46,168 bases of DNA from a virus, in IMG/VR virus record IMGVR_UViG_3300029319_007889, positions 1 to 46,168 of that record. One strand, 5' to 3'. The position numbers and the translations under genes are program-made. The notes below the pieces were generated by a model. It was not told the origin of the DNA and searched no databases. It saw only the letters and a program-made list of their open reading frames with translations. Below, piece after piece: positions 10,717-46,168 of the stretch. The stretch's first letter is position 1. Every line of letters starts with the position of its first letter.

Positions 10717-10719
10717 AGT

Positions 10720-16869: not shown

Positions 16870-16921
16870 TAAACACTACTTATATTGAAAGCTATTTTTG
16901 TATTTTAAGGAGAACAAATCA

Positions 16922-17533
16922 ATGAGCAGCCGCAAACCACTATTGTCCGAGAACACAGTTAGACGCTTTATGAAGCTTGCTACACTGGACAACACCCTCG
17001 CCGAAAACTTTGTAGATACTCTGGAAGAAGAAGTGACAGAGGAAGCTACCGAGGAAACTGAGGCTCTCGAAGAGACCACAGAAGAGGAAGAAACTCTCGA
17101 AGAAACAGAGACAACCGAAGAGGATACTCTAGAAGAGGCCCCTGCTGAAGAAGTCAATGAAGAAACGGTAGAAATGGCTGAAGAGACCACCGAGGTGGCC
17201 GAAGAGATGCACGCCGAAGAAGAAGGCGAGGTCGATGCTGAGGTCGTTGAGAAGTTGGTCGCTGCTATTGCGGATGCTGTCAGTGACGTAACTGGCGTTG
17301 AGGTCGGCGTGGATGCTGGCGAAGAAGCCCCCGCTGAGGACGAGATGGATCTGGAAGATGAGGTTGCAGAAGAGGAGCCTGCCATGGGTCATGAGACAAT
17401 GGAAGAGACTGCCGCAGCTACAACCGAAGAGACCGAGACCCCCGCAGCCCCAAGCACTGATATCACCGAAGCTCTTTTGGATGAGATCACCCGCCGCGTT
17501 GCTGCTAGACTCGTTCGTGAAGCTAAGAAATAA
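16922..17533 (+). CDS. Very acidic scaffold-like protein
   Basis: 203 residues from ATG 16922 with AAGGAGA upstream. After a conserved-looking start (MSSRKPLLSENTVRRFMKLA) the middle is almost entirely Glu, Thr, Ala and Val, ending in the helix ITEALLDEITRRVAARLVREAKK (in parts). Acidic, low-complexity, alpha-helical proteins of this size are typical prohead core or scaffold components; the ClpP-like protease 0.8 kb downstream could remove it. Upstream lies ACTACTTA (16875-16882), a variant of the phage promoter motif; downstream lies a terminator. Confidence 0.8.
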   Translation: MSSRKPLLSENTVRRFMKLATLDNTLAENFVDTLEEEVTEEATEETEALEETTEEEETLEETETTEEDTLEEAPAEEVNEETVEMAEETTEVAEEMHAEEEGEVDAEVVEKLVAAIADAVSDVTGVEVGVDAGEEAPAEDEMDLEDEVAEEEPAMGHETMEETAAATTEETETPAAPSTDITEALLDEITRRVAARLVREAKK

Positions 17534-17551
17534 ACAAACTTACTAAAAAAA

Positions 17552-17593
17552 AGCGTTAATAGGCGATAACAATCTTATTAACGCTATTTTTTT
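17552..17593 (+). terminator. Rho-independent terminator
   Basis: AGCGTTAATA (17552-17561) pairs perfectly with TATTAACGCT (17576-17585) across a 14-base loop, followed by ATTTTTTT. It ends the scaffold-like gene transcript, directly before a new promoter. Confidence 0.88.
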
Positions 17594-17595
17594 GC

Positions 17596-17624
17596 TTGAC
17601 TAACCCCCCTTATCATGGTATGCT
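17596..17624 (+). promoter_or_regulatory. Sigma70 promoter with extended -10
   Basis: TTGACT (17596-17601), 17-base spacer, TATGCT (17619-17624) preceded by TGG (extended -10). The predicted start of transcription falls at or just before the ATG at 17632, so the transcript would be leaderless or nearly so. Confidence 0.78.
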
Positions 17625-17631
17625 ATAAAGC

Positions 17632-18027
17632 ATGGAACAAAACACAATAGATCTTATACAAACATTCCTTTGGTTCCTTGGCGGAGCCGTAACCTACAGA
17701 TTTTTATACACAGTACTTAACTTTGGACAACTTACCATTGTTTTTGAAGAGATGAATAAGAGAATTATAATGTTGGCATATCTTATGGATGGCGATATAG
17801 ACTTTATACGTAAGAAGAAGTACGAATATCTCAAAGAGGGAGGAATGGCCAAAAAAGAGTTACAGTTTATTAAAGAGTTGGATGAACGTATTGTAAGCAC
17901 TTGGAAGGATGGTATTGTCAAGAGGTTCTTCACAGTCTATCCGCCATCGATGTATCGTATTTTACAGTTTCACGATTGGGATAGCGCCGTCAAATACGCT
18001 GCAGAAAACATCAAAAAAGAAAGTTAA
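17632..18027 (+). CDS. Small membrane-anchored protein
   Basis: 131 residues, not recognised. One N-terminal membrane segment (IDLIQTFLWFLGGAVTYRFLY, residues about 6-26), then a cytoplasmic helix-rich part with FIRKKKYEYLKEGGMAKKELQF and an aromatic end. No Shine-Dalgarno; the promoter is directly upstream. Confidence 0.78.
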   Translation: MEQNTIDLIQTFLWFLGGAVTYRFLYTVLNFGQLTIVFEEMNKRIIMLAYLMDGDIDFIRKKKYEYLKEGGMAKKELQFIKELDERIVSTWKDGIVKRFFTVYPPSMYRILQFHDWDSAVKYAAENIKKES

Positions 18028-18051
18028 ACATTTTAGTAACTATATAACATT

Positions 18052-18354
18052 ATGGGACAAGAGATGATTCAAGCATATACCTGGAAAGAAGCATCAGAAG
18101 AGAAGGTTGACTACAAGGTTCAAGTTGAGATCTTGGGTGCAACAAAATGGACTCAAAACAAAGTTAAAAAGATGTTTAACGATTGGGTTCAATTTATCGA
18201 GGGCCACTCCCACAGAGAGAATAAGATTATCATTGGTTACAAGAGGCCATTCGAAAATGAGAAAGAATGGAAAAAGTGGGTCAAAGAGTTCCCCCACAGT
18301 GTTTATCAAATCAAGAAAAACGGAACAGCTAAGCTTCTAAAGAAAGGAAAATAA
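18052..18354 (+). CDS. Small hypothetical protein
   Basis: 100 residues, not recognised. Lys- and Trp-rich (KWTQNKVKKMF, EWKKWVKEF), probably alpha/beta. The upstream ACTATATA (18039-18046) is a variant of the phage promoter motif, five bases before the ATG. It ends directly against the ClpP-like gene. Confidence 0.72.
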   Translation: MGQEMIQAYTWKEASEEKVDYKVQVEILGATKWTQNKVKKMFNDWVQFIEGHSHRENKIIIGYKRPFENEKEWKKWVKEFPHSVYQIKKNGTAKLLKKGK

Positions 18355-19026
18355 ATGCCAAGAAAAAAAGCAGCAGAGGAGCAGTCATGGTCCTGCCCTA
18401 ATTGTGCTCCGCCTGAGGAGGAGGATGGCCTCGAAGAGGAGTTCGATTTGATGATGCTACCACAGATGCTACCCCCGGCGAAGCCAGAGATGCGAACGGT
18501 GGGCCTTTACGGAGATATCGGCGTAGAAAAAGGAATGGAGACGGTTTATTCACTCTTCGCTCTCAAGGACAGCGGCAAAGAGATTGACCTTGAGACGGAA
18601 GAAGTCAGTTATAAGCCAATTGAGATGATTATTTGCACCGGAGGTGGTGCCGCAACTGATATGTTTGCGATCTACGATACAATGAGGATTGTTCGCCAGG
18701 ATTGCGAGATCTCTACATTAGGAATCGGAGAGGTGATGTCCGCCGGCGTTTTAGTCCTCGCTTCAGGCACGAAGGGAAAGAGAAAGATTGGTGCAAACTG
18801 CCGCTTGATGCTACATAGTGTATCAGCAGGTCACCACGGTTCGCTCTTCACCTTAGAGAATGAGTTTGATGAATTTAAGTGGATGCAAGAGAGATATTTT
18901 GCAGCAATCGCTGCAGAAAGTAAATTAAAGAGTAGGCAAATTAAAAAGATCCTTGATCAAAAGGTGAACGTCTACTTTGATGCTGAACAGGCAGTAAAGT
19001 ATGGACTGGCTGACGAAATTATTTAA
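18355..19026 (+). CDS. ClpP-like serine protease (S14), possible prohead protease
   Basis: 223 residues. An N-terminal extension with CPNC is followed by the ClpP/crotonase core: VGLYGDIG, ICTGGGAATDMFAIYDTM (oxyanion region), catalytic Ser in GEVMSAGVLVLASG, catalytic His in RLMLHSVSAG, and the C-terminal Asp region in LDQKVNVYFDAEQAVKYGLAD. In phages S14 enzymes serve either as head-maturation proteases or as regulators. The nearby acidic scaffold-like gene favours head maturation, but no capsid gene is seen here. Confidence 0.85.
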   Translation: MPRKKAAEEQSWSCPNCAPPEEEDGLEEEFDLMMLPQMLPPAKPEMRTVGLYGDIGVEKGMETVYSLFALKDSGKEIDLETEEVSYKPIEMIICTGGGAATDMFAIYDTMRIVRQDCEISTLGIGEVMSAGVLVLASGTKGKRKIGANCRLMLHSVSAGHHGSLFTLENEFDEFKWMQERYFAAIAAESKLKSRQIKKILDQKVNVYFDAEQAVKYGLADEII

Positions 19027-29524: not shown

Positions 29525-30268
29525 ATGATATACATTTTTGATATTGACGGCACGTTGACACCCCATCGTCAACCAGCCACGGATGAGTTTGTAGAGTTCT
29601 TCACCGAATGGCAAAAAGACAAAGAGTTTTATTTAAGTACTGGGTCTGACTTGGGAAAAGTAAAAGAGCAGCTCCCAAAAGAGATCGTAGACTCGGCAAG
29701 GGGGATATTCTGCTGTATGAGCAACCAACTGCATGTCGAGGGCGAGCTTATATACGACTTTGAATACTGGCCCAGTAACAAGATAATAAACGCACTACGC
29801 AACACCCTGAAAGAGAGTTCCTTCCCCCTGCGTTGTGGAAACCATATTGAACAACGCCCAGGCATGATAAACTTCACTATATTGGGCCGCAATGCTAATG
29901 AAGAACAACGAGAAATCTATCATGAGCACGACAAAATAGCAAAAGAAAGGGAGAAGATTGCGTCCAAGTTAAGTCAAGAGTTTGATCATTTGGACTTCGT
30001 GATAGGGGGAAAGATTAGTATAGATATATATCCGAAAGGCAGAGATAAGAGGCAATGCATCGAGTGGATCGTCGAAAACGAAGATCCGACACCTATGTTG
30101 TATTTCGGTGATAGTGTTTACGAAGGTGGCAATGATTATGCCGCGGCCAAAGAAATAGATAAATATGAGGAATCAGAGTGGCATAATGTCAGCAACTGGC
30201 GAGAAACAATGGAACTATTAAAATCCTATGACCTAGTTATTTCAAAGGATGGCGTTACGGAACAGTAA
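29525..30268 (+). CDS. Phosphomannomutase, eukaryote-type HAD family
   Basis: 247 residues, the usual size for alpha-PMM. HAD motif I FDIDGTLTP (both Asp kept), STGSDLGKV (motif II region), GMINFTILGRNA, IGGKISIDIYPKGRDKRQC (the GG...SxDI.P.G.DK signature) and LYFGDSVYEGGNDY (motif IV). It interconverts mannose-6-phosphate and mannose-1-phosphate, feeding GDP-mannose. Likely supports sugar changes with the UDP-sugar dehydrogenase and nucleotidyltransferase-like genes. Overlaps the MopE gene by 20 bases. Confidence 0.88.
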   Translation: MIYIFDIDGTLTPHRQPATDEFVEFFTEWQKDKEFYLSTGSDLGKVKEQLPKEIVDSARGIFCCMSNQLHVEGELIYDFEYWPSNKIINALRNTLKESSFPLRCGNHIEQRPGMINFTILGRNANEEQREIYHEHDKIAKEREKIASKLSQEFDHLDFVIGGKISIDIYPKGRDKRQCIEWIVENEDPTPMLYFGDSVYEGGNDYAAAKEIDKYEESEWHNVSNWRETMELLKSYDLVISKDGVTEQ

Positions 30269-32471
30269 ATTACTATTAGCACTACTACTTTCTTCCTGTT
30301 CTTGCGAAGATACCTGGACTCTTTTTGCCAATGAAAAACAGGCACCCTACCCACTTGACACTACCTGCGATTACAATAACCCACATGCAGAATACAATGA
30401 ACAAATCCCCGAACTTTGCGATGGTATAGACAATAATTGTGACTGCCTAGCCAAACCTTTAAACGAACAAGATACAAATGGAGACTTAGAACACTGCGGC
30501 CCAGGAGACGAAGGCGTGGATGAAGGTTGCGAGTGTTGGCCCGAGATGACGGAATATTCAGTTGATTGGGCAAGCAGTGTAAGAAAGTGTTGGACGAATG
30601 AATTAGGAGGTGATTTAGGTGACATTCGTGAGCATAGTGATGAGATGGGACAGTTACACGGTGAGTGCGAATACGGGCGACAGACTTGCAGACCTATGCC
30701 TCAAGGGGGTTCTGAGTGGGGAGTATGGAATGATGGTCCTGATAGGACTGGCGGCACTACGGATGACGTTTGGATAGAGGGCGGGTGCATCGAAGCAATT
30801 GCCCCTGCGACTGAAACGTGTGACGGCTTAGATAACAACTGCGATGGCCGAACCGATGAAGGATTAAAAAGAATGTGTTGGTCCGGGCCTTCAAATGCAG
30901 ATGGTACGCCTCAAAATTGGTTGGTGATGAATAACCCGAGTAACCCTGAAACTCCATGCCGTACAGGCATTGAGCTGTGTGAAAGTGGTGTATGGTCAGG
31001 GTGCCAGAATGAAATATTGCCATCCACTGAAGTATGCGATAGTTTAGATAATGACTGCGACGGCTTGATCGACGATAATCCCGAAGGGCAAGGGGCACAG
31101 TGTGGACTGACTGATGCTGGAACTTGTGATTATGGAACCTTTCAGTGCGACGGTGCCGACCTGATTTGTATTGATCCAAGATTACCACAAACTGAAGAAT
31201 GTGATGGCGTCGATAACGACTGCGACGGCGAGGTGGACGAAGGTCTTTTACGCCCCTGCGAGAATGAGTGTGGGTCGGGATTTGAGACGTGTGATAGTGG
31301 AGACTGGATTAACTGTAGCGCGCAGCAGCCCGTCGAGGAAGTGTGTGATGCTGAAGACAACGACTGCGACGGTCAGGTAGATGAGGGCTTAGAGTGTAGC
31401 TGCCCCCCTGAGTTTGTTGGCGCTTTGGTTCCTTGTGCACACAATCCACAACTCACTTGCGGCGAAGGATTTATGGAGTGTCGGTGCCTAGACGAACAAT
31501 GCACCACAACTGCGTTTTCGGATTGCATGGCCATGTGTGCATTCCAGCCCGTGGAGCAGGGAGTCTGTGACCCCACTGGCGGAGATCCTATGCCTGAAGA
31601 GTGTGATGCTTGGGATAACGACTGTGATGGCGAGATTGACGAAAGATTGCAATCAGCGTGCTACAGCGGACCCCCTGGAACGCAAGGCGTAGGCTCATGC
31701 CAAGAAGGCGTAATGAGGTGTGCAGATGGGCGCTGGGGAAGTAATGTCGGCGGTGTGTTCGTAGATGGTATTTGCGCTGGAGAGTCTGTACCAGCCGAGG
31801 AGGTCTGCGATCGCATCGACAATGACTGCGACGGCGATATTGATGAAAATTTAGATAGTCATGAAAAGGTGGACATGGTGTTTGCAATCGACCGTAGCGG
31901 TTCGATGTGTGATAAGATTCAAGCACTTCGTGAAGGTATACAGCCTTATGTGCTGGAGTTTGCCGATACTCATCACCGCTTTGCATTAGTGAACATGCCA
32001 GGTACTCGCCGCTCAAGGGGTTCAAGGGGTCCGGGTAATATCTACAGACCCGATGTGCAAATTAACTTTGTAGATTCGATGGCTTTTGCCGCGGCACTCG
32101 CCGCCTTGGATTGCAATCTCAGCAACGAAGAGGCACAATATGATGCTATGGAATCCATTGGCAACGATACTATGGGACTCAACCACAGAGCGGACGCATG
32201 GCCTATGGTGGTGGTGTTGACAGATGAAGTGGCACAGTCTTTTTACGATACCGATGCGGGCGATGTTCGCAGTGCGACTAATCCATGCCAACTGGGCTCC
32301 TGTGAGGCCAATGACGTATTGGAGGTTTTTGCAATAGTTAAGGAAGAGCATTTTTCCGAATGGTGCGCCCCGGCTAACATCGCTCAAGACTGTTACAGAC
32401 TATATTCAGGAATTGATGGAAATACCATTCGAGGTTACTTAGACGATATATTTAGCGACATTTGTCGATAG
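30249..32471 (+). CDS. MopE-repeat lipoprotein with C-terminal VWA domain
   Basis: 740 residues. Lipoprotein-like start (LLLALLLSSC). Seven copies of the MopE metal-binding motif, pattern CDxxDNxCDGxxDE: for example CDGLDNNCDGRTDEG, CDGVDNDCDGEVDEG, CDAEDNDCDGQVDEG and CDRIDNDCDGDIDEN. From about residue 541 a von Willebrand A domain follows, with the MIDAS motif DRSGSM and VVVLTDEV. MopE repeats bind copper or calcium in methanotrophs and are abundant in Myxococcota-type secreted proteins; VWA domains bind ligands through a metal ion. As a phage product it is probably an outer-surface adhesin or virion-displayed receptor binder, perhaps captured from the host. Confidence 0.88.
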   Translation: MALRNSKLLLALLLSSCSCEDTWTLFANEKQAPYPLDTTCDYNNPHAEYNEQIPELCDGIDNNCDCLAKPLNEQDTNGDLEHCGPGDEGVDEGCECWPEMTEYSVDWASSVRKCWTNELGGDLGDIREHSDEMGQLHGECEYGRQTCRPMPQGGSEWGVWNDGPDRTGGTTDDVWIEGGCIEAIAPATETCDGLDNNCDGRTDEGLKRMCWSGPSNADGTPQNWLVMNNPSNPETPCRTGIELCESGVWSGCQNEILPSTEVCDSLDNDCDGLIDDNPEGQGAQCGLTDAGTCDYGTFQCDGADLICIDPRLPQTEECDGVDNDCDGEVDEGLLRPCENECGSGFETCDSGDWINCSAQQPVEEVCDAEDNDCDGQVDEGLECSCPPEFVGALVPCAHNPQLTCGEGFMECRCLDEQCTTTAFSDCMAMCAFQPVEQGVCDPTGGDPMPEECDAWDNDCDGEIDERLQSACYSGPPGTQGVGSCQEGVMRCADGRWGSNVGGVFVDGICAGESVPAEEVCDRIDNDCDGDIDENLDSHEKVDMVFAIDRSGSMCDKIQALREGIQPYVLEFADTHHRFALVNMPGTRRSRGSRGPGNIYRPDVQINFVDSMAFAAALAALDCNLSNEEAQYDAMESIGNDTMGLNHRADAWPMVVVLTDEVAQSFYDTDAGDVRSATNPCQLGSCEANDVLEVFAIVKEEHFSEWCAPANIAQDCYRLYSGIDGNTIRGYLDDIFSDICR

Positions 32472-33223: not shown

Positions 33224-33547
33224 GTGGAAGAAGTTATCAAACCGTTATTGGAATATGGTATATTAGGACTATGGACCGTTAGCTTGATTTGGCAAGGAAG
33301 ACAGGCGCAAGGACGCTTTGATGCAGAAATCAAACGTCATGAAGAAGATAAGGCCGCGATGAGAAAAGTATTAACAATGCACAGCGAACAACTTAATAAA
33401 ATTGAGGACAATTTAGCAAACCTGATTGGCAAAGTAGAAATAATTGCCCGAGATTCCCAAGAAGCAAGGATGAGAGAAGCAATGAGATCCCAAAACAAAA
33501 CAAAATATGTGACAGTCAGAGACTCGTCAGACGGAGAATCAAGATAA
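33224..33547 (+). CDS. Membrane-anchored coiled-coil protein
   Basis: 107 residues, GTG start after GGAGGG. One membrane segment near the N-terminus (LLEYGILGLWTVSLIW), then a long coiled coil (HEEDKAAMRKVLTMHSEQL, NKIEDNLANLIGKVE). This resembles small BhlA/UviB-type holin-like proteins. It overlaps the LDL-A gene by one base. Confidence 0.74.
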   Translation: MEEVIKPLLEYGILGLWTVSLIWQGRQAQGRFDAEIKRHEEDKAAMRKVLTMHSEQLNKIEDNLANLIGKVEIIARDSQEARMREAMRSQNKTKYVTVRDSSDGESR

Positions 33548-35253
33548 TGGCCCGGGCCTGGAGAATTATGGCAATAGCCTATCTTCTGTTTACGGTAGGT
33601 TTCGGCGTTGTCATGCAACAAGCGTGCAGTGCCGTAGCTACATCTAATGTGCATCCCTATGCTGGCCCCGTATGTCAGATAGGTATGCGTCAGAATTGCC
33701 CATGTGAAGGAGAGTGGGGCTGGCAAGACTGCGAAGAGAAGACGGAAGGATACTTCACTTGGGCAGAGTGTCAGTGCGAAGGCGAGTACCCCGACGTTAC
33801 GACAGAGCCAGATCCGAAACCAGCTAAGGAAGAGGAAGGCGGCGAAGGCGAGGGCGAAGGTGAAGGAGAGGTCGCGGAAGGAGAAGGTGAGGGAGAGGCT
33901 GCTGAAGGTGAGGGTGAAGAGGAGCCCGCAGAGGGAGAGCCAGAACCAGCCGAAGGGGAAGGAGAGGAAGGCGAAGGTGAAAAGGGAGAAGGTGAAGGCG
34001 AGGGTGAAGGGGAAGAAGAACTAGAGTGCGAAGAGTTGCAGCTAATGTGCGAAGATTTGCAGCAGTGCATCCCTGAAGAGTGGCGATGTGATCACGAGGA
34101 AGACTGTGAAGATGGGAGCGATGAGTGGGATTGTCCTCCGCCCGAGCCCCGCCCAGGACAAAACTTAGGCGACGACTGCACGGGAGATCACAATATTTGT
34201 GTGGGTGATTTGACATGCTTAGGTTACAACCATAGCGGCCATGAAGGTCGCATATGCACGATCGGCTGCCAATTGGATGAAGATTGTGATGATGAAGATT
34301 TTAGATGCATGCAGCCCGCAGAAGGGCTTGGTTGGTGCCTGCCTTCGGATACTTTCCCAGAAGACCCTGGGTGTGAGGATAACGAGTTTGAGTGTCACGA
34401 TGGATCCGACTGCGTTCCTCCTGAAGAAATGTGCGATGGTGAAAACAATTGTGACGATGGCACGGATGAAGCTGATTGCCCCGAGCCCGAACCGGAAGAG
34501 TTCTGCTGCGCCGATGGCATAGGGTGTGTGCCATTGGACAAGCAATGCAACGGCGATAACGACTGCGTTGACCATAGTGATGAGTTTAATTGCCCAGCGC
34601 GAGGATGCGGACCCCTCTCTGATTGCTTTGGCGGGTGCCATTGCCCAGACGCTAACTCAGATGGGCGGTGTGATGATCGCGACCGCGAAGTAGGCGATGT
34701 CCACGATTGTATCCAAGAGTGTATCGACACAATTGGTCAGGACTCCTGGCAGGCTTACCAGGCACGCAACCAATGTATGAATGACAATTGTCCATGGGAT
34801 GTGACAGGTGGTAACGCTTGGGAAGAATATATTTGCTCTATGCGCCACTGCTTGCCCGAATTGCAGGCATGCGGCGATAGCTATGACACTGGGGACATTC
34901 CTTTTGAATGTGCCGAGAACCAGTTCCAGTGCTCCGGTCAAGAACGCTGCATTCCTGAGGAGTGGGTCTGCGATGGGGATAATGACTGTGGAGATATGTC
35001 GGACGAGCCCGCTGATCAGTGCGCCCCGCCTGAGCCAGAAGATTTGTGTGAGGGCTATGAATATAAAGTTTGTGCCGCTAATGCTGACTGTGGCGCAGAC
35101 GGTTTCTGTCATAACATAAGATCTATGTCTGACGGCGGGTCTTGCTTGCCAAGCTCATGTCAGTGCGACCCTACGACGGGGCTCCCTGGAAACGCTTGTA
35201 CTCGAATGTGTGTTAACATGGGAGCACCCCGCGGTTTATGCGGACCAATATAA
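33547..35253 (+). CDS. Secreted protein with four LDL-receptor class A modules and Glu-Gly linker
   Basis: 568 residues. A hydrophobic start (IMAIAYLLFTVGFGVVM) acts as signal or anchor. Residues about 96-158 are almost only Glu and Gly (GEGEGEGE, with Ala and Pro). Four LDL-A-like modules follow, each with six cysteines and the calcium-binding SDE/TDE end: near residues 161-197 (DCEDGSDEWDC), 277-312 (NCDDGTDEADC), 319-349 (DCVDHSDEFNC) and 456-493 (DCGDMSDEP). Further cysteine-rich parts lie between. LDL-A modules bind ligands through calcium and disulfides, so the protein must be exported or displayed. This mix is known from bacterial surface proteins of predatory or marine groups. Phage use as receptor binder or host-surface mimic is inference. 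Confidence 0.85.
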   Translation: MARAWRIMAIAYLLFTVGFGVVMQQACSAVATSNVHPYAGPVCQIGMRQNCPCEGEWGWQDCEEKTEGYFTWAECQCEGEYPDVTTEPDPKPAKEEEGGEGEGEGEGEVAEGEGEGEAAEGEGEEEPAEGEPEPAEGEGEEGEGEKGEGEGEGEGEEELECEELQLMCEDLQQCIPEEWRCDHEEDCEDGSDEWDCPPPEPRPGQNLGDDCTGDHNICVGDLTCLGYNHSGHEGRICTIGCQLDEDCDDEDFRCMQPAEGLGWCLPSDTFPEDPGCEDNEFECHDGSDCVPPEEMCDGENNCDDGTDEADCPEPEPEEFCCADGIGCVPLDKQCNGDNDCVDHSDEFNCPARGCGPLSDCFGGCHCPDANSDGRCDDRDREVGDVHDCIQECIDTIGQDSWQAYQARNQCMNDNCPWDVTGGNAWEEYICSMRHCLPELQACGDSYDTGDIPFECAENQFQCSGQERCIPEEWVCDGDNDCGDMSDEPADQCAPPEPEDLCEGYEYKVCAANADCGADGFCHNIRSMSDGGSCLPSSCQCDPTTGLPGNACTRMCVNMGAPRGLCGPI

Positions 35254-37561: not shown

Positions 37562-37608
37562 TTTGTCACATTACTGACTATTTAGTAGCAATATGAAGAT
37601 AAAAGAGA
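37562..37608 (+). repeat. 47-base direct repeat, left copy
   Basis: Identical to 39119-39165 except for one base (C at 37589, T at 39146). It contains TGTCACATTACTG, the ACTATTTA motif and the first codons MKIKE of pckA. The repeat unit is 1557 bases, a multiple of three. Confidence 0.97.
37577..37584 (+). promoter_or_regulatory. ACTATTTA promoter-like motif for pckA
   Basis: Eight bases before the ATG at 37593, with no Shine-Dalgarno between. The transcript would be leaderless or nearly so. Confidence 0.5.
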
Positions 37609-39113
37609 CCATGTTGGATAAGGTGTTTGAGTTTGGAGATGTGCTTATTAACCCCTCCCGCGCTGCGCTACGAGAGTTAGCTCAGCCTGGGGAAATGACG
37701 ACCCGATGGGGCAGCCCGGCTTACATCAGCCGGGTGCGCTCTCGGTCGGCTGCGTTCACCGTCACTGATATTGATGACGGCTTCTCGCCGGAGGATCTCG
37801 ATGAGGTTCGTGCGGTGCGAGAGTATCTCTCTGATAAAGAGATGTTGCAGGTCGATCGAGTCATGGGCATGGACGCCGAGCGTAGTTTTCGCTGTCGGTT
37901 GTACATTCGTCCTTCTCTCGCCCGTGTGGCGATGATGTGGCAAGCCAGCTTGTTTGCCCACAATACGGGCGACGCTCGCGGGCCGGACTTCGTTACGGTG
38001 TACGTCCCAGAATGGCATCGCCGTCGGATTCTGGTGAGTCTGGAGACAGGGCTCACCCTCGTGCTTGGTGTGGATTACTACGGCGAAAGCAAGATGTCGT
38101 TCTTGCGCCAGGCGATGTACGCCGCGAAGACCCGTTGGGGCGGGATCGGGCTGCATGCCGGGTCCAAGCTTCTGACCGTCAGAAATGCAGAAACCAATGA
38201 ATTGCAGGAGCGGGGCGCCATTTTCTTTGGTCTCTCCGGGACGGGCAAGACGAGTTTGACCTGCCACCATCATGAGCTGGAAGGCGAGGAGACGGTGGAG
38301 ATTCTCCAAGACGACATCGTGTTCATGGACGCGAGCGGCGCCTGTTATGGAACAGAGGAAGGCTTCTACATCAAGACCGAGGGCCTCGATCCCAAAGATC
38401 AAGAGCTGTTGTACGACGCTGCGATCTCCGAGAACGCCATCTTTGAGAACACTTGGGTGGGCCCGGACCGTGAGGTGGATTTCGAGAATGGCGCCCTCAC
38501 GGGGAATGGGCGCGCCTTGGTGTTAAGGCCCGAGGTGAAGAACACCTCCGAGCGCATTGATTTGAAGAAATCTCATCTTGTGTTCTTCATCACGAGAAAC
38601 CAGACCATCGTCCCGCCTGTTGCGAGACTCAACCCTGCCCAGGCAGCGGCTGCTTTCATGTTGGGTGAGTCGATCAAGACCAGCGCAGCGGATCCCACCG
38701 CCAAGGGTGAGCCTGTTCGATGCGTGGGTACCAACCCCTTCATCGTGGGTTCGCTCTCGGCCGAGGGGAATCGTTTCTACGACATCATTAAGCGCAACGC
38801 GGACGACATTGAGTGTTTCTTATTGAACACCGGCAAGATTGGGGGCCCACAGGGTGAAAAGATCTCGTTGATGGCGAGCCAGGCCATTATTCGAGAGTTG
38901 GCCCGCGGGACAGTGCAGTGGAAAAAGGATGCCGATTGGGGTTACGAGACCCCTGTCTCCATTCCTGGTCTCGAAGTTGAACAGTTTGAGCCCCAACGCT
39001 TCTACAGTGATCAAGAGCTGAGCGAACTCACCTCGGAGTTGAAGGCCGATCGCCAGGAGTGGCTGTCTTCGTTCCCAGGTCTAGATGAGGAGATTGTCGA
39101 GGTCTTTCAATAA
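37593..39113 (+). CDS. pckA: ATP-type phosphoenolpyruvate carboxykinase
   Basis: 506 residues. Core motifs are present: metal Lys in YYGESKMSF, His in GLHAGSKLL, P-loop GAIFFGLSGTGKTSL, metal Asp in LQDDIVFMD, TEEGFYIKTEG, substrate Arg in VPPVARLNP, and NTGKIGGPQG. The N-terminal substrate loop GRSPKDK of the standard enzyme is not seen; the nearest is FSPEDLDEV. I recall similar divergent PEPCKs in Myxococcota-type bacteria (memory, not a search). It converts oxaloacetate to phosphoenolpyruvate and CO2. Base composition is clearly richer in GC than the neighbours (hand counts: 68% at 38461-38520, 62% at 38701-38760, against 47% at 39181-39240). Bracketed by 47-base repeats: a recently gained metabolic gene. 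Confidence 0.92.
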   Translation: MKIKETMLDKVFEFGDVLINPSRAALRELAQPGEMTTRWGSPAYISRVRSRSAAFTVTDIDDGFSPEDLDEVRAVREYLSDKEMLQVDRVMGMDAERSFRCRLYIRPSLARVAMMWQASLFAHNTGDARGPDFVTVYVPEWHRRRILVSLETGLTLVLGVDYYGESKMSFLRQAMYAAKTRWGGIGLHAGSKLLTVRNAETNELQERGAIFFGLSGTGKTSLTCHHHELEGEETVEILQDDIVFMDASGACYGTEEGFYIKTEGLDPKDQELLYDAAISENAIFENTWVGPDREVDFENGALTGNGRALVLRPEVKNTSERIDLKKSHLVFFITRNQTIVPPVARLNPAQAAAAFMLGESIKTSAADPTAKGEPVRCVGTNPFIVGSLSAEGNRFYDIIKRNADDIECFLLNTGKIGGPQGEKISLMASQAIIRELARGTVQWKKDADWGYETPVSIPGLEVEQFEPQRFYSDQELSELTSELKADRQEWLSSFPGLDEEIVEVFQ

Positions 39114-41941: not shown

Positions 41942-42160
41942 CTAAGCAGCCCCCGGTATTACTTGCCAAGACTCCGCTGCCATTGTGTTGCCAAGCTCAT
42001 CTTCTCGAATCATCGTCAGCCTGCCACTTTGAACACAAAACATTCTCCAGAAATGAAAGTTATAAATATGGCTTACACGCTTCTCTATGAGGATATATTT
42101 TGCTTGTGTATTCTTATTCAGAAGCAAATCGCCTTCTTTCATTACCTTTCTACGTTTCAT
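41942..42160 (-). CDS. Small SH3-like protein (array member)
   Basis: 72 residues (a second Met at residue 7 is a possible start). MKEGDLLLNKN, then strands AKYILIEKRV and FWRMFCVQSGRLTMIREDEL. The G-D-L-L start and strand spacing match the array of short proteins here. Ends back to back with dnaJ. Confidence 0.65.
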   Translation of the reverse strand: MKRRKVMKEGDLLLNKNTQAKYILIEKRVSHIYNFHFWRMFCVQSGRLTMIREDELGNTMAAESWQVIPGAA

Positions 42161-42183
42161 GCTATAACTAGGTTATAGGAACA

Positions 42184-42387
42184 CTAACCGTTCGATTTGA
42201 TTCGTCTGATTCTTAATTTATGCACCTCTCTCACAACTTTGCCATCGATTAGTACATCCCACAACCATTCATGATGTCGGTACATTCCGTTATGTTCAGA
42301 TATGCAAAGCAAGATGCCTAATTGGGGCTCTTGGTTGAATAGCTCGACCTCTACTAGATCGCCTACTTTTAGTGGTTGACGTGGCAT
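42184..42387 (-). CDS. Small SH3-like protein (array member)
   Basis: 67 residues. PLKVGDLVEVELFN, LGILLCISEH, LWDVLIDGKVVREVHKLRI: a clear GDLV, GILL, WDVLIDG pattern with five likely strands. A bulged inverted repeat (CACCCTTAC with GTAAGTAGGGTG) lies directly upstream at about 42392-42413. Confidence 0.72.
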   Translation of the reverse strand: MPRQPLKVGDLVEVELFNQEPQLGILLCISEHNGMYRHHEWLWDVLIDGKVVREVHKLRIRRIKSNG

Positions 42388-42427
42388 AGTTCACCCTTAC
42401 CAGTAAGTAGGGTGCACTATGTTTGAA

Positions 42428-42577
42428 TTATCTTTTATATGGAATTATATCTTTCGTAAGAACCCACACAGGTCGCCCGTAGATGCCCCAAAACACAAAG
42501 GCACTTTCTTCTTTTAGCTTCACCACAACACCAGGGTGTGTACCGGAGACATATTGAACAACATCGCCCTTTTTCAT
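42428..42577 (-). CDS. 49-residue SH3-like microprotein (array member)
   Basis: Read by hand: MKKGDVVQYVSGTHPGVVVK, then SAFVFWGIYGRPVWVLTKDI. The pattern GDVV, PGVVV, FVFW fits the array. ATGA overlap with the membrane peptide upstream. Confidence 0.72.
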   Translation of the reverse strand: MKKGDVVQYVSGTHPGVVVKLKEESAFVFWGIYGRPVWVLTKDIIPYKR

Positions 42578-42663
42578 TTCTTATTGCCCTCTCTTATAGC
42601 AAACGCCAACGTCAGACCCCCAGCAAGGAGCACAAAAAACATCATATCAAGATACGCATACAT
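42574..42663 (-). CDS. 29-residue membrane microprotein
   Basis: MYAYLDMMFFVLLAGGLTLA then FAIREGNKK; one membrane segment. Starts directly after the previous stop and overlaps the next gene by ATGA, so it is likely translated by coupling. Confidence 0.6.
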   Translation of the reverse strand: MYAYLDMMFFVLLAGGLTLAFAIREGNKK

Positions 42664-42774
42664 TCAAACAGAATCATCCCATTCGTCATTGTCGAGTATC
42701 GCGAATATCACACAGAGGATAAGCAGGAATCCAAAAATTTTAAATACATATTCTACTAATTCATTTTCAGTCAT
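42664..42774 (-). CDS. 36-residue membrane microprotein
   Basis: ELVEYVFKIFGFLLILCVIF is a single membrane segment followed by an acidic end (DNDEWDDSV). ATGA overlap with the SH3-like gene at 43007. Not recognised. Confidence 0.62.
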   Translation of the reverse strand: MTENELVEYVFKIFGFLLILCVIFAILDNDEWDDSV

Positions 42775-43007
42775 TCGTCTGCCTTGTTCACCATTATAAG
42801 CCAATACGAGTTGAATTGCAACTTTTTTTTATTAGAAAGTTGTACGGTGTATAATTCCTGGTCGTCTTTTGAAATAATGAGCCCAATCCTATCTTCTGGT
42901 ATGTCGCTATCCTCGATACCGAGTCTTATTTGGACTAAATCGCCAATCTTAGGCTCTTGATCTTCGTGCCACAAGTCGAATACGGGCTTCAAATCAATTT
43001 CTTCCAA
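42771..43007 (-). CDS. SH3-like protein (array member), TTG start
   Basis: 78 residues. EPKIGDLVQIRLGIED, DRIGLIISKDDQELYTVQL, LQFNSYWLIM: the family pattern. No good ribosome site; a 20-base palindrome lies four bases upstream of the TTG, suggesting control of this four-gene unit (43007 to 42428). Confidence 0.68.
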   Translation of the reverse strand: MEEIDLKPVFDLWHEDQEPKIGDLVQIRLGIEDSDIPEDRIGLIISKDDQELYTVQLSNKKKLQFNSYWLIMVNKADE

Positions 43008-43011
43008 TTTC

Positions 43012-43031
43012 GGGTATACCTAGGTATACCC
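43012..43031. promoter_or_regulatory. Perfect 20-base palindrome, operator-like
   Basis: GGGTATACCTAGGTATACCC. Lies between the stop of the tagged gene (43059) and the start of the microprotein unit. Without a T-run it is not a typical terminator; a repressor-binding site is the simplest reading. Confidence 0.7.
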
Positions 43032-43058
43032 CAAAACTGAGTATAAACTTTTATAGCT

Positions 43059-43754
43059 TTATTGTTCAATCTTTTTCGCTTTAGAGGCGATGGAGCGCAC
43101 CACCATTCTCTCTTGACGAGACAAATCTTGGTAAGAACTAACCTCTTCTTTGAAGACGATCGGGCGATTTGAAACACGAGTCATAAATTCGCCTTCTTTT
43201 CCTGCCGAAAAGCCACCGATTGATTCACGGTTGCCCATTCCGGGCCACTCGCTATTGTTCGTGCCAAAGACATAAGCATCCTGGCCACCCTTCGGTATCA
43301 ATAGAACGGAGTCTTGACAATACCTCACACCCAAGGAAACAACATTCTCAAAGAAGTTGGCCGAATCAGAAAGGTTGACTACAAAGAAGCTACCCTCTTT
43401 TACTTCGATAGATTCAGGTGCCTCCTTTCCATCTCTCTTGTCTTGTGCGATTTGCTCTGGCGTGCGATAGTTTTCAATGTAGGAACCATCTACAGCCGTC
43501 ACACCGAAACCAGCATCCAAGAGCATAGCTTTGAGTTCTCTGTTTCTTCTTTTGTTGGTTTGAAGGGTAGTGTTCTCTCCACCTTCCTCTGGAGCCAATT
43601 CGTCACTGCACCTACTCATATCAGTAGGGTCATTACGAAAGGCTGTAACAATCGCTGTATCGTGCTCAGTCATGTGTTTATGAAAGCGAGCGAGTCCAGA
43701 TTCGTTTAGAACATTATCTCTCCATTCATTCATTATGTTTTTCATTTCAGACAT
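43059..43754 (-). CDS. Tagged protein, DUF3293-like
   Basis: 231 residues. The N-terminus MKNIMNEWRDNVLNESG carries the shared tag. The body has TAIVTAFRND, NKRRNRELKAMLLDAGFGVTAVDGSYIEN (in parts), VKEGSFFVVNL and RYCQDSVLLIPKGGQDAYVFG, which by eye follow the DUF3293 layout. Function unknown. The tag suggests packaging with the genome. Confidence 0.78.
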   Translation of the reverse strand: MSEMKNIMNEWRDNVLNESGLARFHKHMTEHDTAIVTAFRNDPTDMSRCSDELAPEEGGENTTLQTNKRRNRELKAMLLDAGFGVTAVDGSYIENYRTPEQIAQDKRDGKEAPESIEVKEGSFFVVNLSDSANFFENVVSLGVRYCQDSVLLIPKGGQDAYVFGTNNSEWPGMGNRESIGGFSAGKEGEFMTRVSNRPIVFKEEVSSYQDLSRQERMVVRSIASKAKKIEQ

Positions 43755-43758
43755 ATAA

Positions 43759-43766
43759 TAAATAGT
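43759..43766 (-). promoter_or_regulatory. ACTATTTA motif, minus strand
   Basis: Reads ACTATTTA on the minus strand, four bases before the first ATG of the tagged gene and thirteen before the in-frame ATG at 43745. Confidence 0.5.
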
Positions 43767-43783
43767 TCGTTATATACTAAAGG

Positions 43784-43847
<64 letters not shown>

Positions 43848-43857
<10 letters not shown>

Positions 43858-44267
43858 AATAGTTGACCTTTTTCATCCACCAGTTTGAGACAGATATTAT
43901 AAAAAGTCTCAACCAAAAAGAGCCTTGGAATATCTTTAGCAGTCATTCCCTCAAAGATGTCAGAGGGGTCAACCTCTGGCATAACCTCTTGGAGGCTCCG
44001 TAAGCCTAATGGAGTAAGCACCCCATCAATCTCAAAGTCACCATCCAGACCTTCTTGGCTACGACGTTGGACCTCCCCACGGGGTATCTTGACACCAAGA
44101 CCTCTTTCTAGTCTGAAAGCAATGTCAAGAAAGTCTAACGACTCTGCACCCAAGTCATCAATGACTCGGGATTTCAATTCTACTTCTTCTGGTTCAACAC
44201 CGAGGGCTTCGACAAAAGCGTCAGCTACAGCGTCGAACACTTCTTCATGTGTCCACTGTTTATCCAT
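43848..44267 (-). CDS. Acyl carrier protein-like
   Basis: 139 residues from ATG 44267 (AAAGGA upstream). The N-terminal 75 residues are an ACP: THEEVFDAVADAFVEALGVE, VIDDLGAESLDFLDIAFRLE with the phosphopantetheine Ser in ESLD, then a longer C-terminal part than usual (GVLTPLGLRSLQEVMPEVDP, FLVETFYNICLKL). Carries acyl chains as a thioester. A phage copy may hijack lipid A or fatty-acid synthesis. The last three codons including the stop lie inside tRNA-Arg. Confidence 0.88.
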
Positions 44268-44291
44268 TTCCTTTATCCTTTGGTAATGGTA

Positions 44292-44299
44292 TAAATAGT
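44292..44299 (-). promoter_or_regulatory. ACTATTTA motif, minus strand, before the ACP gene
   Basis: ACTATTTATA on the minus strand, about 25 bases upstream of the ACP ATG and just downstream of tRNA-Thr. Confidence 0.5.
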
Positions 44300-44332
44300 T
44301 CTTTATCTCCTCATGAGTACATTTATTATTAT

Positions 44333-44408
44333 TGGAGCCACTTCTCGGATTTGAACCGAGGACCGCGGGTTTACAAAACCCGTGCTCTACCAACTGAGCT
44401 AAAGTGGC
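44333..44408 (-). tRNA. tRNA-Thr (anticodon UGU)
   Basis: Acceptor GCCACTT with AAGTGGC, D arm TAGCTCAGTTGGTAGAGC, anticodon arm CGGGT-TTTGTAA-ACCCG, T arm with GGTTCAAATCC. The 3' end CCA is encoded. Reads ACA codons. Starts three bases after the stop of the gene at 44412. Confidence 0.97.
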
Positions 44409-44411
44409 GTA

Positions 44412-44678
44412 TTATTTTTTTATATGCTTCCATAGTTGAGGATACTTTACTACCTTGTGTCTCAAGGTTCTTTCATAATGGGTCATCTCCCTTTGAGTCG
44501 ATGTGTTCCACATTCTCCAAAAAAAGCGCCTTTTGACTTTTTTACTTTGTATGTCATCGTATTGATCATCTGGGTCTTGGAACCTTTCGAGCAACACATA
44601 GATAGCCCTGTGTCCTCCTTCATTTTCCATCAACACGATGAGATCACCGGGATTGAATGTTGGGTTTAGTCTTCTCAT
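44412..44678 (-). CDS. SH3-like protein (array member)
   Basis: 88 residues from ATG 44678, preferred over a TTG at 44699 because the promoter's predicted start falls between them. PTFNPGDLIVLMENEGGH, AIYVLLERFQ give the GDLI core; the C-terminal half is a basic extension (SKKVKRRFFWRMW). Confidence 0.68.
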   Translation of the reverse strand: MRRLNPTFNPGDLIVLMENEGGHRAIYVLLERFQDPDDQYDDIQSKKVKRRFFWRMWNTSTQREMTHYERTLRHKVVKYPQLWKHIKK

Positions 44679-44689
44679 TCGTCTGTTAT

Positions 44690-44718
44690 AGTTTATCAAG
44701 TATGTGTGCTAATGTCAA
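44690..44718 (-). promoter_or_regulatory. Sigma70-type promoter, minus strand
   Basis: On the minus strand TTGACA (44718-44713), 17-base spacer, TAAACT (44695-44690). Predicted transcript start about five bases before the ATG at 44678. Confidence 0.72.
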
Positions 44719-44921
44719 GGGTTTTGTGAAATTACTTTGAGGTGGCGAATTGCATACCAATCTTGCATGTATTCAACAACGCCGGTATCTTGCCATAGTA
44801 TTTTTACTAAATGCATTACGAGTTCATCGTCGAGGGGCTTGATTTCTATTACAACCCCAGTTTTTGGTTTATCTCCTTCAAATGAGGGCAGGTAACTAAC
44901 TAGTTGTCCTATTTCAAACAT
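44715..44921 (-). CDS. SH3-like protein (array member)
   Basis: 68 residues from ATG 44921 (a GTG at 44951 is in frame but lies upstream of the promoter's expected start). MFEIGQLVSYLPSFEGD, TGVVIEIKPL, MHLVKILWQDTGVVEYM: GQLV, GVVIEI and VKILW match the family. No ribosome site. Confidence 0.7.
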   Translation of the reverse strand: MFEIGQLVSYLPSFEGDKPKTGVVIEIKPLDDELVMHLVKILWQDTGVVEYMQDWYAIRHLKVISQNP

Positions 44922-44942
44922 ATTTGTTGCTAATCTAGTTTC

Positions 44943-44972
44943 ATAATACACTAATAGGCATCCCCTTGTAAA
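44943..44972 (-). promoter_or_regulatory. Probable sigma70-type promoter, minus strand
   Basis: TTTACA (44972-44967), 18-base spacer, TATTAT (44948-44943) on the minus strand. The bases from here to the plus-strand promoter at 45141 hold no gene I can support; it is the divergent control region of the array. Confidence 0.55.
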
Positions 44973-45140
44973 GTATTATTTTCAGTATCGTGCGGCGTCC
45001 CTTGTCTTGTAGTAAGTAGGTTAGATGCGCGTATGTTGCAAGAATGTTGCCAAAATTTTTTATTATAAAGCTGCGCCAAATTTTTTCATATACTACATAC
45101 CTCGTTACGCACAATACACCCAACTACCCAAAAATAATAC

Positions 45141-45169
45141 TTGACACTAGGGGAGGCTTGGTGTATAAT
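45141..45169 (+). promoter_or_regulatory. Sigma70 consensus promoter
   Basis: TTGACA (45141-45146), 17-base spacer, TATAAT (45164-45169): a perfect match. Drives the two membrane microproteins. Confidence 0.9.
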
Positions 45170-45196
45170 GCGTATTCATCTTTAGGAGAGAATACA

Positions 45197-45283
45197 ATGG
45201 AACAGTTAGCACCCTTTATTTGGTTTGGCGTTTACGGTAGTGGCATTGCAGGTGCAGCGGCTTACTACAGGTTCTTCAAGTGA
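45197..45283 (+). CDS. 28-residue membrane microprotein
   Basis: MEQLAPFIWFGVYGSGIAGA then AAYYRFFK, with AGGAGAG upstream. One Gly/Ala-rich membrane segment. An earlier in-frame ATG at 45044 lies before the promoter and is not used. Confidence 0.72.
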   Translation: MEQLAPFIWFGVYGSGIAGAAAYYRFFK

Positions 45284-45381
45284 TGTGGTCAGCCATCAAG
45301 CTAGCAGCCGCCTATGTTATTTTGCTTGTTGGAATACGTATATTTATAAAGAAATACCTTGACAACAACCCCTATCTTTGA
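45283..45381 (+). CDS. 32-residue membrane microprotein
   Basis: MWSAIKLAAAYVILLVGIRI then FIKKYLDNNPYL. Its ATG shares a base with the previous stop (TGATG), a translational-coupling arrangement. The next promoter's -35 lies inside its 3' end. Confidence 0.65.
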   Translation: MWSAIKLAAAYVILLVGIRIFIKKYLDNNPYL

Positions 45382-45387
45382 TATAAT
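45359..45387 (+). promoter_or_regulatory. Sigma70 consensus promoter, leaderless gene
   Basis: TTGACA (45359-45364), 17-base spacer, TATAAT (45382-45387). The ATG at 45394 is seven bases after the -10, where transcription should begin. Confidence 0.9.
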
Positions 45388-45393
45388 AATTGC

Positions 45394-45582
45394 ATGACAA
45401 ACGAGCCTTACATTCCTATTGAAGTTGGTGATCTTGTGCGTGTTGGTGCAAAGATCGGTATCGTTGTCAAACACATCACATGGGATGACCGCTATGGCGG
45501 CTTCACCATCAAGCACGGCAACACCAAAAGCTCTTATCGGGCTGATTCGGTCATTCTGCTTTCTAAAGCGGCCCGTCCTTGA
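45394..45582 (+). CDS. SH3-like protein (array member)
   Basis: 62 residues. PIEVGDLVRVGAKIGIVVKH, then YGGFTIKHGN and YRADSVILLS: the clearest GDLV-GIVV core. No Shine-Dalgarno; probably a leaderless message. Its stop overlaps the next start (TTGA). Confidence 0.75.
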   Translation: MTNEPYIPIEVGDLVRVGAKIGIVVKHITWDDRYGGFTIKHGNTKSSYRADSVILLSKAARP

Positions 45583-45761
45583 TTTTCGAGGGTTCTTTGG
45601 TTGAACATATTTACTTAGGAGACGTGGGCGTTGTGGTAAAGACATATCCACCCACCATGTATACTGGTCGAATTTACGAAGTTATGTGGCAAAGAGGAAA
45701 AAAAAGCACGCTAGTGGGACCAAGAGAAATAAAATTACTTGACAAACCAACCAATGTTTGA
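45579..45761 (+). CDS. SH3-like protein (array member), TTG start
   Basis: 60 residues. GSLVEHIYLGDVGVVVKTYP, then YEVMWQRGKKSTLVGPREIK. Closely similar to the next gene (LVxHIxxGxVGVVV, MWQ/LWQ), so the two arose by duplication. TTG overlaps the previous stop. Confidence 0.7.
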   Translation: MIFEGSLVEHIYLGDVGVVVKTYPPTMYTGRIYEVMWQRGKKSTLVGPREIKLLDKPTNV

Positions 45762-45767
45762 TACTCT
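45739..45767 (+). promoter_or_regulatory. Sigma70-type promoter, leaderless gene
   Basis: TTGACA (45739-45744), 17-base spacer, TACTCT (45762-45767); ATG 45774 is again seven bases after the -10. Confidence 0.75.
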
Positions 45768-45773
45768 ATATAC

Positions 45774-46025
45774 ATGATACTGGAACGAGGCATATTGGTA
45801 AAGCATATCCCGACTGGAGCAGTGGGGGTTGTTGTGTCGCTTGATCCGCCCACTGCGTGTTGTGGCTATGAATCGTGTGGATGTGACAGGGATAAATACT
45901 ACACGCCAATGGCGAAAGTGCTTTGGCAAACCGGCGGAAGTGCTGGAAAGGAGACAGCAACTTGGGCTCTTTCGGTTGAGCCCGTAGACGATAGCGCATA
46001 CCATGTCCAAACAGATCAGTTGTAA
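45774..46025 (+). CDS. SH3-like protein (array member)
   Basis: 83 residues. MILERGILVKHIPTGAVGVV, then a cysteine insert (CCGYESCGCDRD) not found in the sister at 45579, then MAKVLWQTGG. The insert could bind a metal. Overlaps the next gene by 23 bases. Confidence 0.75.
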   Translation: MILERGILVKHIPTGAVGVVVSLDPPTACCGYESCGCDRDKYYTPMAKVLWQTGGSAGKETATWALSVEPVDDSAYHVQTDQL

Positions 46026-46168
46026 ATTTGTGGTGGGCGATCTAGTTTATCGACCAAAAGAAGAGAGCACATACAAGGGGCGTAAGTTAGGCATCATCAC
46101 AAAAGTACACAACGAACCTTTTTCTAATTTGGTTGATGTTGTGTGGGATGATGGAAACAAACAAGAAT
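46003..46168 (+). CDS. SH3-like protein (array member), cut by the window edge
   Basis: 55 residues visible, frame open to the right edge. KFVVGDLVYRPKEEST, LGIITKVHNE, NLVDVVWDDGNKQ match the family core GDLV, GIIT and VVWDDG. Start ATG 46003. Confidence 0.72.
   Translation, partial: MSKQISCKFVVGDLVYRPKEESTYKGRKLGIITKVHNEPFSNLVDVVWDDGNKQE

What the first reader, a model, noticed from the sequence alone, without database searches (positions are those of the whole stretch)
41942..46168. Array of ten short SH3-like proteins
Ten genes of about 49-88 residues on both strands (starts 42160, 42387, 42577, 43007, 44678, 44921 minus; 45394, 45579, 45774, 46003 plus) share GDLV, then GIVV, then V-x-W. 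Two (45579, 45774) are clear recent duplicates, and one carries a cysteine insert. Such an expanding set of tiny barrels with separate promoters looks like a family of host-takeover effectors or adaptor proteins, and the array continues past the right edge.
Basis: partly seen in the sequence, partly recalled or inferred. Interest (0 to 1): 0.8.

Follow-up and report, generated by a model that had tools for sequence, protein, structure and literature searches.

The report
Shuffled arrays of KOW-like phage microproteins
A stretch of phage DNA carries ten tiny barrel-shaped proteins of a large, unnamed phage protein family, whose genes in many uncultured phages sit in long arrays of overlapping, freely reordered cassettes, probably an early repertoire of proteins that bind host machinery.

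Summary
The ten short genes are real and related. Profiles built only from other phages pick them out of 405 window ORFs: all ten at ranks 1-10, or nine of ten. AlphaFold gives a five-strand SH3-like barrel for two members; its solved relatives are largely KOW/Tudor-type domains, many of RNA polymerase or ribosome binders, but no curated family cut-off is met. The array is conserved in place, and longer (27 hand-picked members), in the nearest relative found, and lies beside a SAM-lyase-like gene and two consensus host promoters.

The wider find: the family is abundant in uncultured phages (9-32 matches in each of 15 records of 159-293 kb, all with T4 gp23). There about half of neighbouring members overlap by exactly 14 nt: one ~27-nt string encodes the end of one protein (LEVI[SN]ESR*), a Shine-Dalgarno sequence, and the next start (MKVGD). 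Array order is scrambled between phages whose backbone stays collinear (15 of 16 adjacencies broken against 2 of 26). The window shows the family without that junction. An early host-takeover role is inferred, not shown. New variant of the known small-early-gene regions of large phages.

The parts
41942..42160 (-). Family member, 72 aa, divergent (GDLL, FWRM); orthologue in G001 (L002 10641-10856)
   Evidence: (E 2e-11, 38%); A7 profile E only 0.081
42184..42387 (-). Family member, 67 aa
   Evidence: E 4e-4; E 6e-8
42428..42577 (-). Family member, 49 aa, the shortest
   Evidence: E 9e-6; E 3e-5
42771..43007 (-). Family member, 78 aa, TTG start; orthologue in G001 (L002 10887-11087)
   Evidence: (E 1e-16, 59%)
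43059..43754 (-). Neighbour inside the array, not a member: S-adenosylmethionine-lyase-like protein, 231 aa
   Evidence: PF23780 E 5e-7, 30.2 bits over cut-off 28; relatives in 26 named phage records
43782..43857 (-). tRNA-Arg (tct), also in G001
43848..44270 (-). Neighbour, not a member: acyl-carrier-protein-like
   Evidence: PF00550 E 3e-8
44333..44408 (-). tRNA-Thr (tgt), also in G001
44412..44678 (-). Least certain member, 88 aa; orthologue next to the same tRNA in G001 (L002 13249-13503)
   Evidence: (E 4e-17, 32%); G001 profile E 0.066; not found by A7
44715..44921 (-). Family member, 68 aa, the best match to both outside profiles
   Evidence: E 4e-6; E 1.5e-9
45141..45169 (+). Sigma-70 consensus promoter, 12/12, spacer 17
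45197..45283 (+). Small hydrophobic ORF, 28 aa, similar one in the same place in G001; not a member
   Evidence: sequence and by eye
45359..45387 (+). Sigma-70 consensus promoter, 12/12, spacer 17, TG before the -10
45394..45582 (+). Family member, 62 aa
   Evidence: E 0.001; E 7.5e-4
45579..45761 (+). Family member, 60 aa, TTG start overlapping the previous stop by 4 nt
   Evidence: E 8e-5; E 7e-7
45774..46025 (+). Family member, 83 aa, with cysteine insert CCx4CxC (possible zinc site); folded by AlphaFold2
   Evidence: (E 2e-28 to G001 orthologue)
46003..46168 (+). Family member, at least 55 aa, cut by the window edge
   Evidence: E 7e-4; E 7e-9

Best explanation
The ten genes belong to a large phage family of single-domain KOW-like SH3 barrels (shown by sequence profile; fold by prediction). 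They sit in an early-type gene region with consensus host promoters (sequence evidence only). The family spreads and diversifies as cassettes: in many uncultured phages neighbouring members share a ~27-nt junction that encodes the end of one protein, a ribosome-binding site and the start of the next, so cassettes can be reordered without breaking frames, and orders are in fact scrambled (shown by comparison; the recombination step itself is inferred). Inferred: the proteins are an early repertoire of small binding modules aimed at the host gene-expression machinery (RNA polymerase or ribosome, as KOW/Tudor relatives do), each cassette with its own target or niche. The window carries a collinear, conserved branch of the family without the shuffling junction.
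For: Family. Fold; KOW affinity. Orthologues in order in G001. Early placement: two 12/12 promoters, promoter excess in G001 and denser promoters in arrays than outside in 8 of 8 contigs, SAM-lyase-like neighbour. Junction: 313 of 602 pairs, and 206 of 490 after removing pattern-matching pairs; 10 of 12 in G002, not chosen by the pattern. Shuffling against a collinear backbone. Purifying selection: median pN/pS 0.36 in 70 unsaturated of 276 pairs.
Against: No partner, expression or phenotype data. No curated KOW cut-off is met, Z values are in the range common to any small barrel, and one model's best match is HspQ instead. One of five compared pairs is nearly collinear in the array (G059/G060). 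The window has no 14-nt junction. Promoter-like sites over the whole window region are not in excess (13 against 9.9, sd 2.9).
Confidence: 0.5

Rival explanations
1. The barrels act as adaptors or decoys for a host protease, like HspQ for Lon: they redirect host proteolysis during infection.
For: Foldseek's only PDB match below E 0.001 for the 45774 model is HspQ, E 7.6e-4. A phage adaptor-like protein acting on ClpC is known from SPO1's takeover module (abstract of PMC6873191).
Against: For the canonical member HspQ is not among the 50 listed matches. YccV-like (PF08755) matches 2 of 78 members, best E 0.0035, below its cut-off in the one member listed. The profile of the 45774 pair finds no PDB sequence at E<=10.
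Confidence: 0.1
2. They are anti-defence proteins: a repertoire in which each barrel blocks a different host defence system, exchanged between phages as defences change.
For: Copy number and order vary strongly between phages; a SAM-lyase-like gene lies inside the window array.
Against: PADLOC gives only 2 chance-level matches among 78 members (that library holds defence, not anti-defence, proteins). Orthologues are under purifying, not diversifying, selection.
Confidence: 0.2
3. They are virion proteins (decoration or internal head proteins).
For: Small barrels are common in phage virions (recalled).
Against: Consensus host promoters and neighbours of early type point to early genes; arrays lie far from the gp23 gene, e.g. 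131-148 kb against 76 kb in G044.
Confidence: 0.05
4. The arrays are mostly a by-product of recombination: a junction that tolerates duplication and reordering multiplies cassettes with little benefit to the phage.
For: Reordering and copy-number variation (9-32 matches per record); the start ATGAAAGTNGGTGA holds stops in both other frames, so any upstream frame ends there by default (sequence).
Against: pN/pS about 0.36-0.40; orthologues kept between the divergent window and G001 phages; the 14-nt frame is favoured over the 4-nt frame, 313 to 41.
Confidence: 0.1

Closest known systems
KOW domains of NusG, Spt5, uL24 (Pfam PF00467) and related RNA-polymerase-binding barrels (UvrD C-terminal domain, Mfd)
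   Same: Five-strand SH3-like barrel; profile matches to uL24c (E 3.7e-4) and NusG (E 0.0015); Spt5 KOW Z 8.6, rmsd 1.2
   Different: Free-standing 50-90 aa proteins in arrays, no curated cut-off met; target unknown
HspQ / YccV-like (PF08755)
   Same: Best Foldseek match of the 45774 model (E 7.6e-4)
   Different: No sequence membership; not among the 50 listed matches of the canonical member
Shuffled small-ORF regions of T4-type phages: S-PM2 'ORFanage' (PMC4503421, passages and Results/Discussion read) and PeSL cassettes (Arbiol 2010, Comeau 2014; seen only as citations, not held)
   Same: Many small ORFs of unknown function whose order is rarely conserved between T4-type phages
   Different: S-PM2 ORFs are not of this family. 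PeSLs are promoter plus stem-loop between genes; here the repeated element is an overlapping stop/start with RBS inside the coding sequence, and terminator-like stems are not in excess
SPO1 host takeover module (PMC6873191, abstract read)
   Same: A cluster of 26 phage genes whose products shut down host processes
   Different: Relation to this family not tested here; no shared junction or fold family described in the abstract

Membership tests
KOW (PF00467) | Score over the curated family cut-off | tested here: not met
   No window member hits KOW at E<=1; 2 of 78 relatives at best E 0.0014, which I read as below the cut-off though the listing gives no bits for these two
KOW (PF00467) | Five-strand SH3-like barrel | tested here: met
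   AlphaFold2 models; alignments to KOW domains
KOW (PF00467) | Conserved KOW motif with its glycine | tested here: inconclusive
   Profile aligns to NusG, Spt5 and uL24 KOW with a shared GD and G; E 0.0015-0.007 only
KOW (PF00467) | Binding to RNA polymerase, ribosome or RNA | not testable with these tools
   No interaction data
HspQ / YccV-like (PF08755) | Score over the curated family cut-off | tested here: not met
   Absent from window members at E<=1; 14.3 bits against 22.8 in L129
HspQ / YccV-like (PF08755) | Fold | tested here: inconclusive
   Best Foldseek match for one model, not listed for the other
PeSL shuffling cassettes of T4-type phages | Early promoter between shuffled genes | tested here: inconclusive
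   Promoter-like sites denser in arrays in 8 of 8 contigs, but most cassettes abut with no intergenic space
PeSL shuffling cassettes of T4-type phages | Stem-loop terminator next to the promoter | tested here: not met
   Terminator-like sites not above shuffles: 3 against 3.3 in the window region, 13 against 16.7 in L049
S-PM2 ORFanage | Sequence homology of its ORFs to this family | tested here: not met
   Best E 0.71 among 136 ORFs; no match in the whole S-PM2 record at E<=0.01
Integron-type gene cassettes | Integrase and attC-type sites | not tested
   Not searched; the repeated element lies inside overlapping coding sequence

The most novel reading that the evidence does not exclude
A permutation-proof gene array: a fold whose last strand (LEVI) and first residues (MKVGD) can be encoded by one ~27-nt string that is also a ribosome-binding site, stop and start, so that every gene carries its own translational coupler and recombination site. 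Large phages thereby keep a freely reshuffled, exchangeable repertoire of KOW-like regulators of host transcription or translation.
Probability: 0.35. Interest if true: 0.88.

Novelty: new variant of a known kind. Interest (0 to 1): 0.7.

Why it matters
Large phages carry many small early genes of unknown function. This gives a single fold family to hundreds of them (877 matches in 80 loci), a sequence signature that finds more, and a concrete, testable way by which such regions could be reordered while every gene stays translatable. If the KOW-like link to RNA polymerase or ribosome holds, it would point to where these proteins act.

Tried and rejected
Direct homology searches that gave nothing: window members against Pfam, PHROGs and NCBIfam (best E 0.012); tblastn of single members against named phages (no match, or only matches at E 0.6 and above); relatives of the SAM-lyase-like gene in viral contigs (none by tblastn). 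Searches with the 45774 and 42774 pairs found only G001 itself. Records found through the DnaJ gene are mostly unrelated: at E<=0.1 only 4 of the 38 others had any match and only one, G002, several (G001).

Considered and rejected: that the ten are a recent local expansion (orthologues in G001); that S-PM2's ORFanage is the same family; that the scrambling is only paralogue confusion (it remains after requiring orthologue scores at least 1.5 times the best paralogue); that it is plain misassembly (three near-identical contig pairs keep the same order over 17, 12 and 7 members, though they may stem from related samples; the 313 junction strings take 268 distinct forms). The alignment-end test cannot tell recombination at the junction from selection for whole genes. 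Literature searches showed no paper on this family or junction; the library lacks most subscription papers and all preprints.

Limits: the 27 G001 members were chosen by eye, and those on its minus strand lost their last residue in the lists; the member at L002 13796-13981 may have a wrong start. For alignment A7 I used 78 of the 110 members selected. A run with a larger alignment timed out and was replaced. One search used the trimmed ends for G001 and printed gaps of -11, -11, -20 and -11; with the missing codon they are -14, -14, -23 and -14.
Full report
What the window is. The window is a linear IMG/VR virus fragment of 46,168 bases. The main genes up to 41.9 kb run on the plus strand; the finding lies in the last 4.2 kb, where strand and GC skew change.

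Checking the ten genes. All ten ORFs are present. Their pairwise similarity inside the window is mostly weak, so I tested them with profiles from elsewhere. The nearest relative found through the window's DnaJ gene (50% identity) is an 84.7-kb contig, here G001 (loci L002, L049). Downstream of its DnaJ gene it has the same two tRNAs and a longer run of small ORFs, continuing to the contig end. Four window genes have clear orthologues there (E 2e-11 to 2e-28) and two more have weaker ones (E 2e-5, 3e-5), all in the same order. A profile from 27 hand-picked G001 members ranks the ten window genes first to tenth of 405 window ORFs; the reversed decoys' best E is 0.73. A profile from 78 members of other phages finds nine of ten and nothing else in the window at E<1; 44415-44678 is missed. 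So the family is real and 44415-44678 is its least certain member.

Fold. AlphaFold2 gives a five-strand SH3-like barrel for 45774 (pLDDT 80.7, 45 of 83 residues at 90 or above) and for a canonical relative (pLDDT 90.8). For 45774 Foldseek's best PDB match is HspQ (E 7.6e-4), well ahead of the next (0.046). For the canonical member the best matches include eS4, PetP, the UvrD C-terminal domain with the RNA polymerase lobe, and Mfd, at E 0.03-0.05. The second aligner puts archaeal Spt5 KOW first (Z 8.6, rmsd 1.2, 50 residues) and NusG KOW at Z 7.6 (rmsd 1.2, 47 residues, 38% identity), but Tudor domains and photosystem subunits score alike. By sequence, the profiles reach uL24c (E 3.7e-4) and Spt5 (0.005) and NusG (0.0015). 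I call the family KOW-like, not KOW, since no curated cut-off is met. In 45774 an insert holds CCx4CxC, and CCx4CxH in G001; a zinc site is plausible, untested.

Context. Two 12/12 sigma-70 sites with 17-nt spacers stand 5' of the plus-strand genes; a third 12/12 site with a 16-nt spacer lies at 7589, and 20 mononucleotide shuffles of the window gave none. In the region as a whole promoter-like sites are not in excess (13 against 9.9, sd 2.9); in the G001 region they are (23 against 11.4, sd 3.5). The gene at 43059-43754 matches S-adenosylmethionine lyases, which in phages such as T3 counter restriction (recalled). This fits an early, host-directed region.

The wider family. A second DnaJ-linked contig, G002, has a tandem run at 76.3-79.3 kb and more members elsewhere. 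At its junctions, and at some in G001, start and stop overlap in one recurring string. I scanned viral contigs for that junction: the scan stopped at 120 stretches and listed 80 loci; my own rough estimate put the chance expectation below one. The same pattern gave 6 stretches in 257 billion bases of bacterial and archaeal genomes, all titled as MAGs. In the 80 loci a refined profile finds 877 members among 5,865 ORFs at E<1e-3 and none among reversed ORFs. Fifteen large records (159-293 kb) have 9 to 32 matches each, and all fifteen carry a T4-type major capsid gene (24 of 42 records searched; G001 and G002, both fragments, do not). Thirteen named phage records, including T4, KVP40, P-SSM2, S-SSM7, S-PM2 and HTVC008M, gave no match at E<=0.01 except one each in LR756508 (5.6e-5) and a Flavobacterium phage (0.007).

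The junction. Of 602 adjacent same-strand member pairs less than 200 nt apart, 313 overlap by exactly 14 nt, in 74 of the 80 loci; the next commonest value is -4 (41). Because the loci were chosen by a junction pattern, I removed every pair matching it: of the remaining 490 pairs, 206 still overlap by 14 nt (its counts of matching pairs, 107 and 112, differ because some matching pairs have another called overlap). In G002, not chosen by the pattern, 10 of 12 do. The consensus, about TTGGAGGTNATCARTGAAAGTCGGTGA, reads LEVI[SN]ESR-stop in one frame and RBS, start and MKVGD in another; 192 of 313 upstream proteins end in ESR. A Shine-Dalgarno-like string lies upstream of 197 of 313 such starts, against 49 of 289 others. 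The last strand of the predicted barrel (residues 51-55 of 58) lies over LEVI. The start string contains stops in both other frames, so part of this is automatic; the 313 to 41 preference for one frame and the conserved RBS are not.

Shuffling. I compared eight contigs. In G054 against G065, 17 confidently assigned orthologous cassettes (mean 64% identity) have 15 of 16 adjacencies broken, all in the same relative orientation, while 27 backbone genes have 2 of 26 broken (|tau| 0.98). G044 against G074: 5 of 9 broken, backbone 3 of 16. G044 against G058: 10 of 15, backbone 0 of 11. G060 against G064: 2 of 6, backbone 0 of 21. G059 against G060 is the exception: 2 of 10, backbone 1 of 8. Pooled over these five pairs: 34 of 56 against 6 of 82. 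The five are the pairs with at least seven confident orthologues that I chose to examine. Alignment ends inside coupled runs fall within 25 nt of a junction in 75.6% of 349 cases, against 22.1% (sd 2.2) for random positions. Orthologues are under purifying selection: aggregate pN/pS 0.40 over 276 pairs, median 0.36 in the 70 unsaturated ones. Promoter-like sites of at least 10/12 are denser in arrays than outside, on the array strand, in 8 of 8 contigs.

Reading. The safest statement is anatomical: a KOW-like microprotein family, early-type placement, and cassette arrays with a dual-coding junction in many phages. That the proteins act on host RNA polymerase or ribosomes is the mechanism I find most likely, from fold affinity alone. 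The window itself holds a conserved, collinear branch; the shuffling evidence comes from relatives, not from the window.

Literature. PMC4503421 (passages; Results and Discussion) describes a 9.5-kb S-PM2 region of small ORFs with rarely conserved synteny, whose loss gave larger plaques; its ORFs are not of this family. It cites PeSL-mediated shuffling in T4-like phages; those two papers are not held. PMC10666635 (listing only) names -4 and -1 nt as the common short overlaps of prokaryotic genes.

Noticed in passing
window 8652-13462: The DNA polymerase III alpha gene is in two pieces: the first ends in an intein-like stretch, the second begins with what reads like an intein C-terminus, and a nuclease-like ORF (10609-11673) lies between. 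It looks like a split intein with a free-standing endonuclease, an arrangement I recall as described.
   Followed up: partly
window 37593-39113: Phage-borne phosphoenolpyruvate carboxykinase (PF01293, E 1e-63).
   Followed up: partly
window 30249-32471 and 33547-35253: Large proteins with MopE-type metal-binding motifs (PF11617) and LDL-receptor class A repeats (PF00057, E 1e-27); unusual in a phage, perhaps a clue to the host.
   Followed up: partly
window 43848-44270, minus strand: Acyl-carrier-protein-like gene between the two tRNAs (PF00550).
   Followed up: partly
L215 (S-PM2 4000-19000): Several S-PM2 ORFanage genes also overlap by 4 or 8 nt and often begin MTD, perhaps an unrelated family with a similar overlapping junction.
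   Followed up: no
L177, L180 (CP070664.1, titled WOR-3 MAG chromosome): Family members and junctions in a 2.8-Mb MAG chromosome: 13 matches in three places; prophage or cellular array not settled.
   Followed up: partly
L002 18367-18744; G054 14339-14728; G065 60850-61248: A second small protein (MGYxSxVVLA...) recurs among the arrays of G001 and the T4-type contigs, seen by eye, which suggests that the regions are homologous.
   Followed up: no
L002 15700-16319: Two neighbouring genes of another small family share an identical-looking C-terminus (HGGIVSGELPPGIPYLRATS), seen by eye.
   Followed up: no
window 45774-46025 (model m0b0336f43def): Structure matches among viral proteins cluster in a few accession series (A0A516LB.., A0A516M7.., A0A411BN..), so some deposited phages may carry several such barrels; they could not be looked up here.
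   Followed up: no
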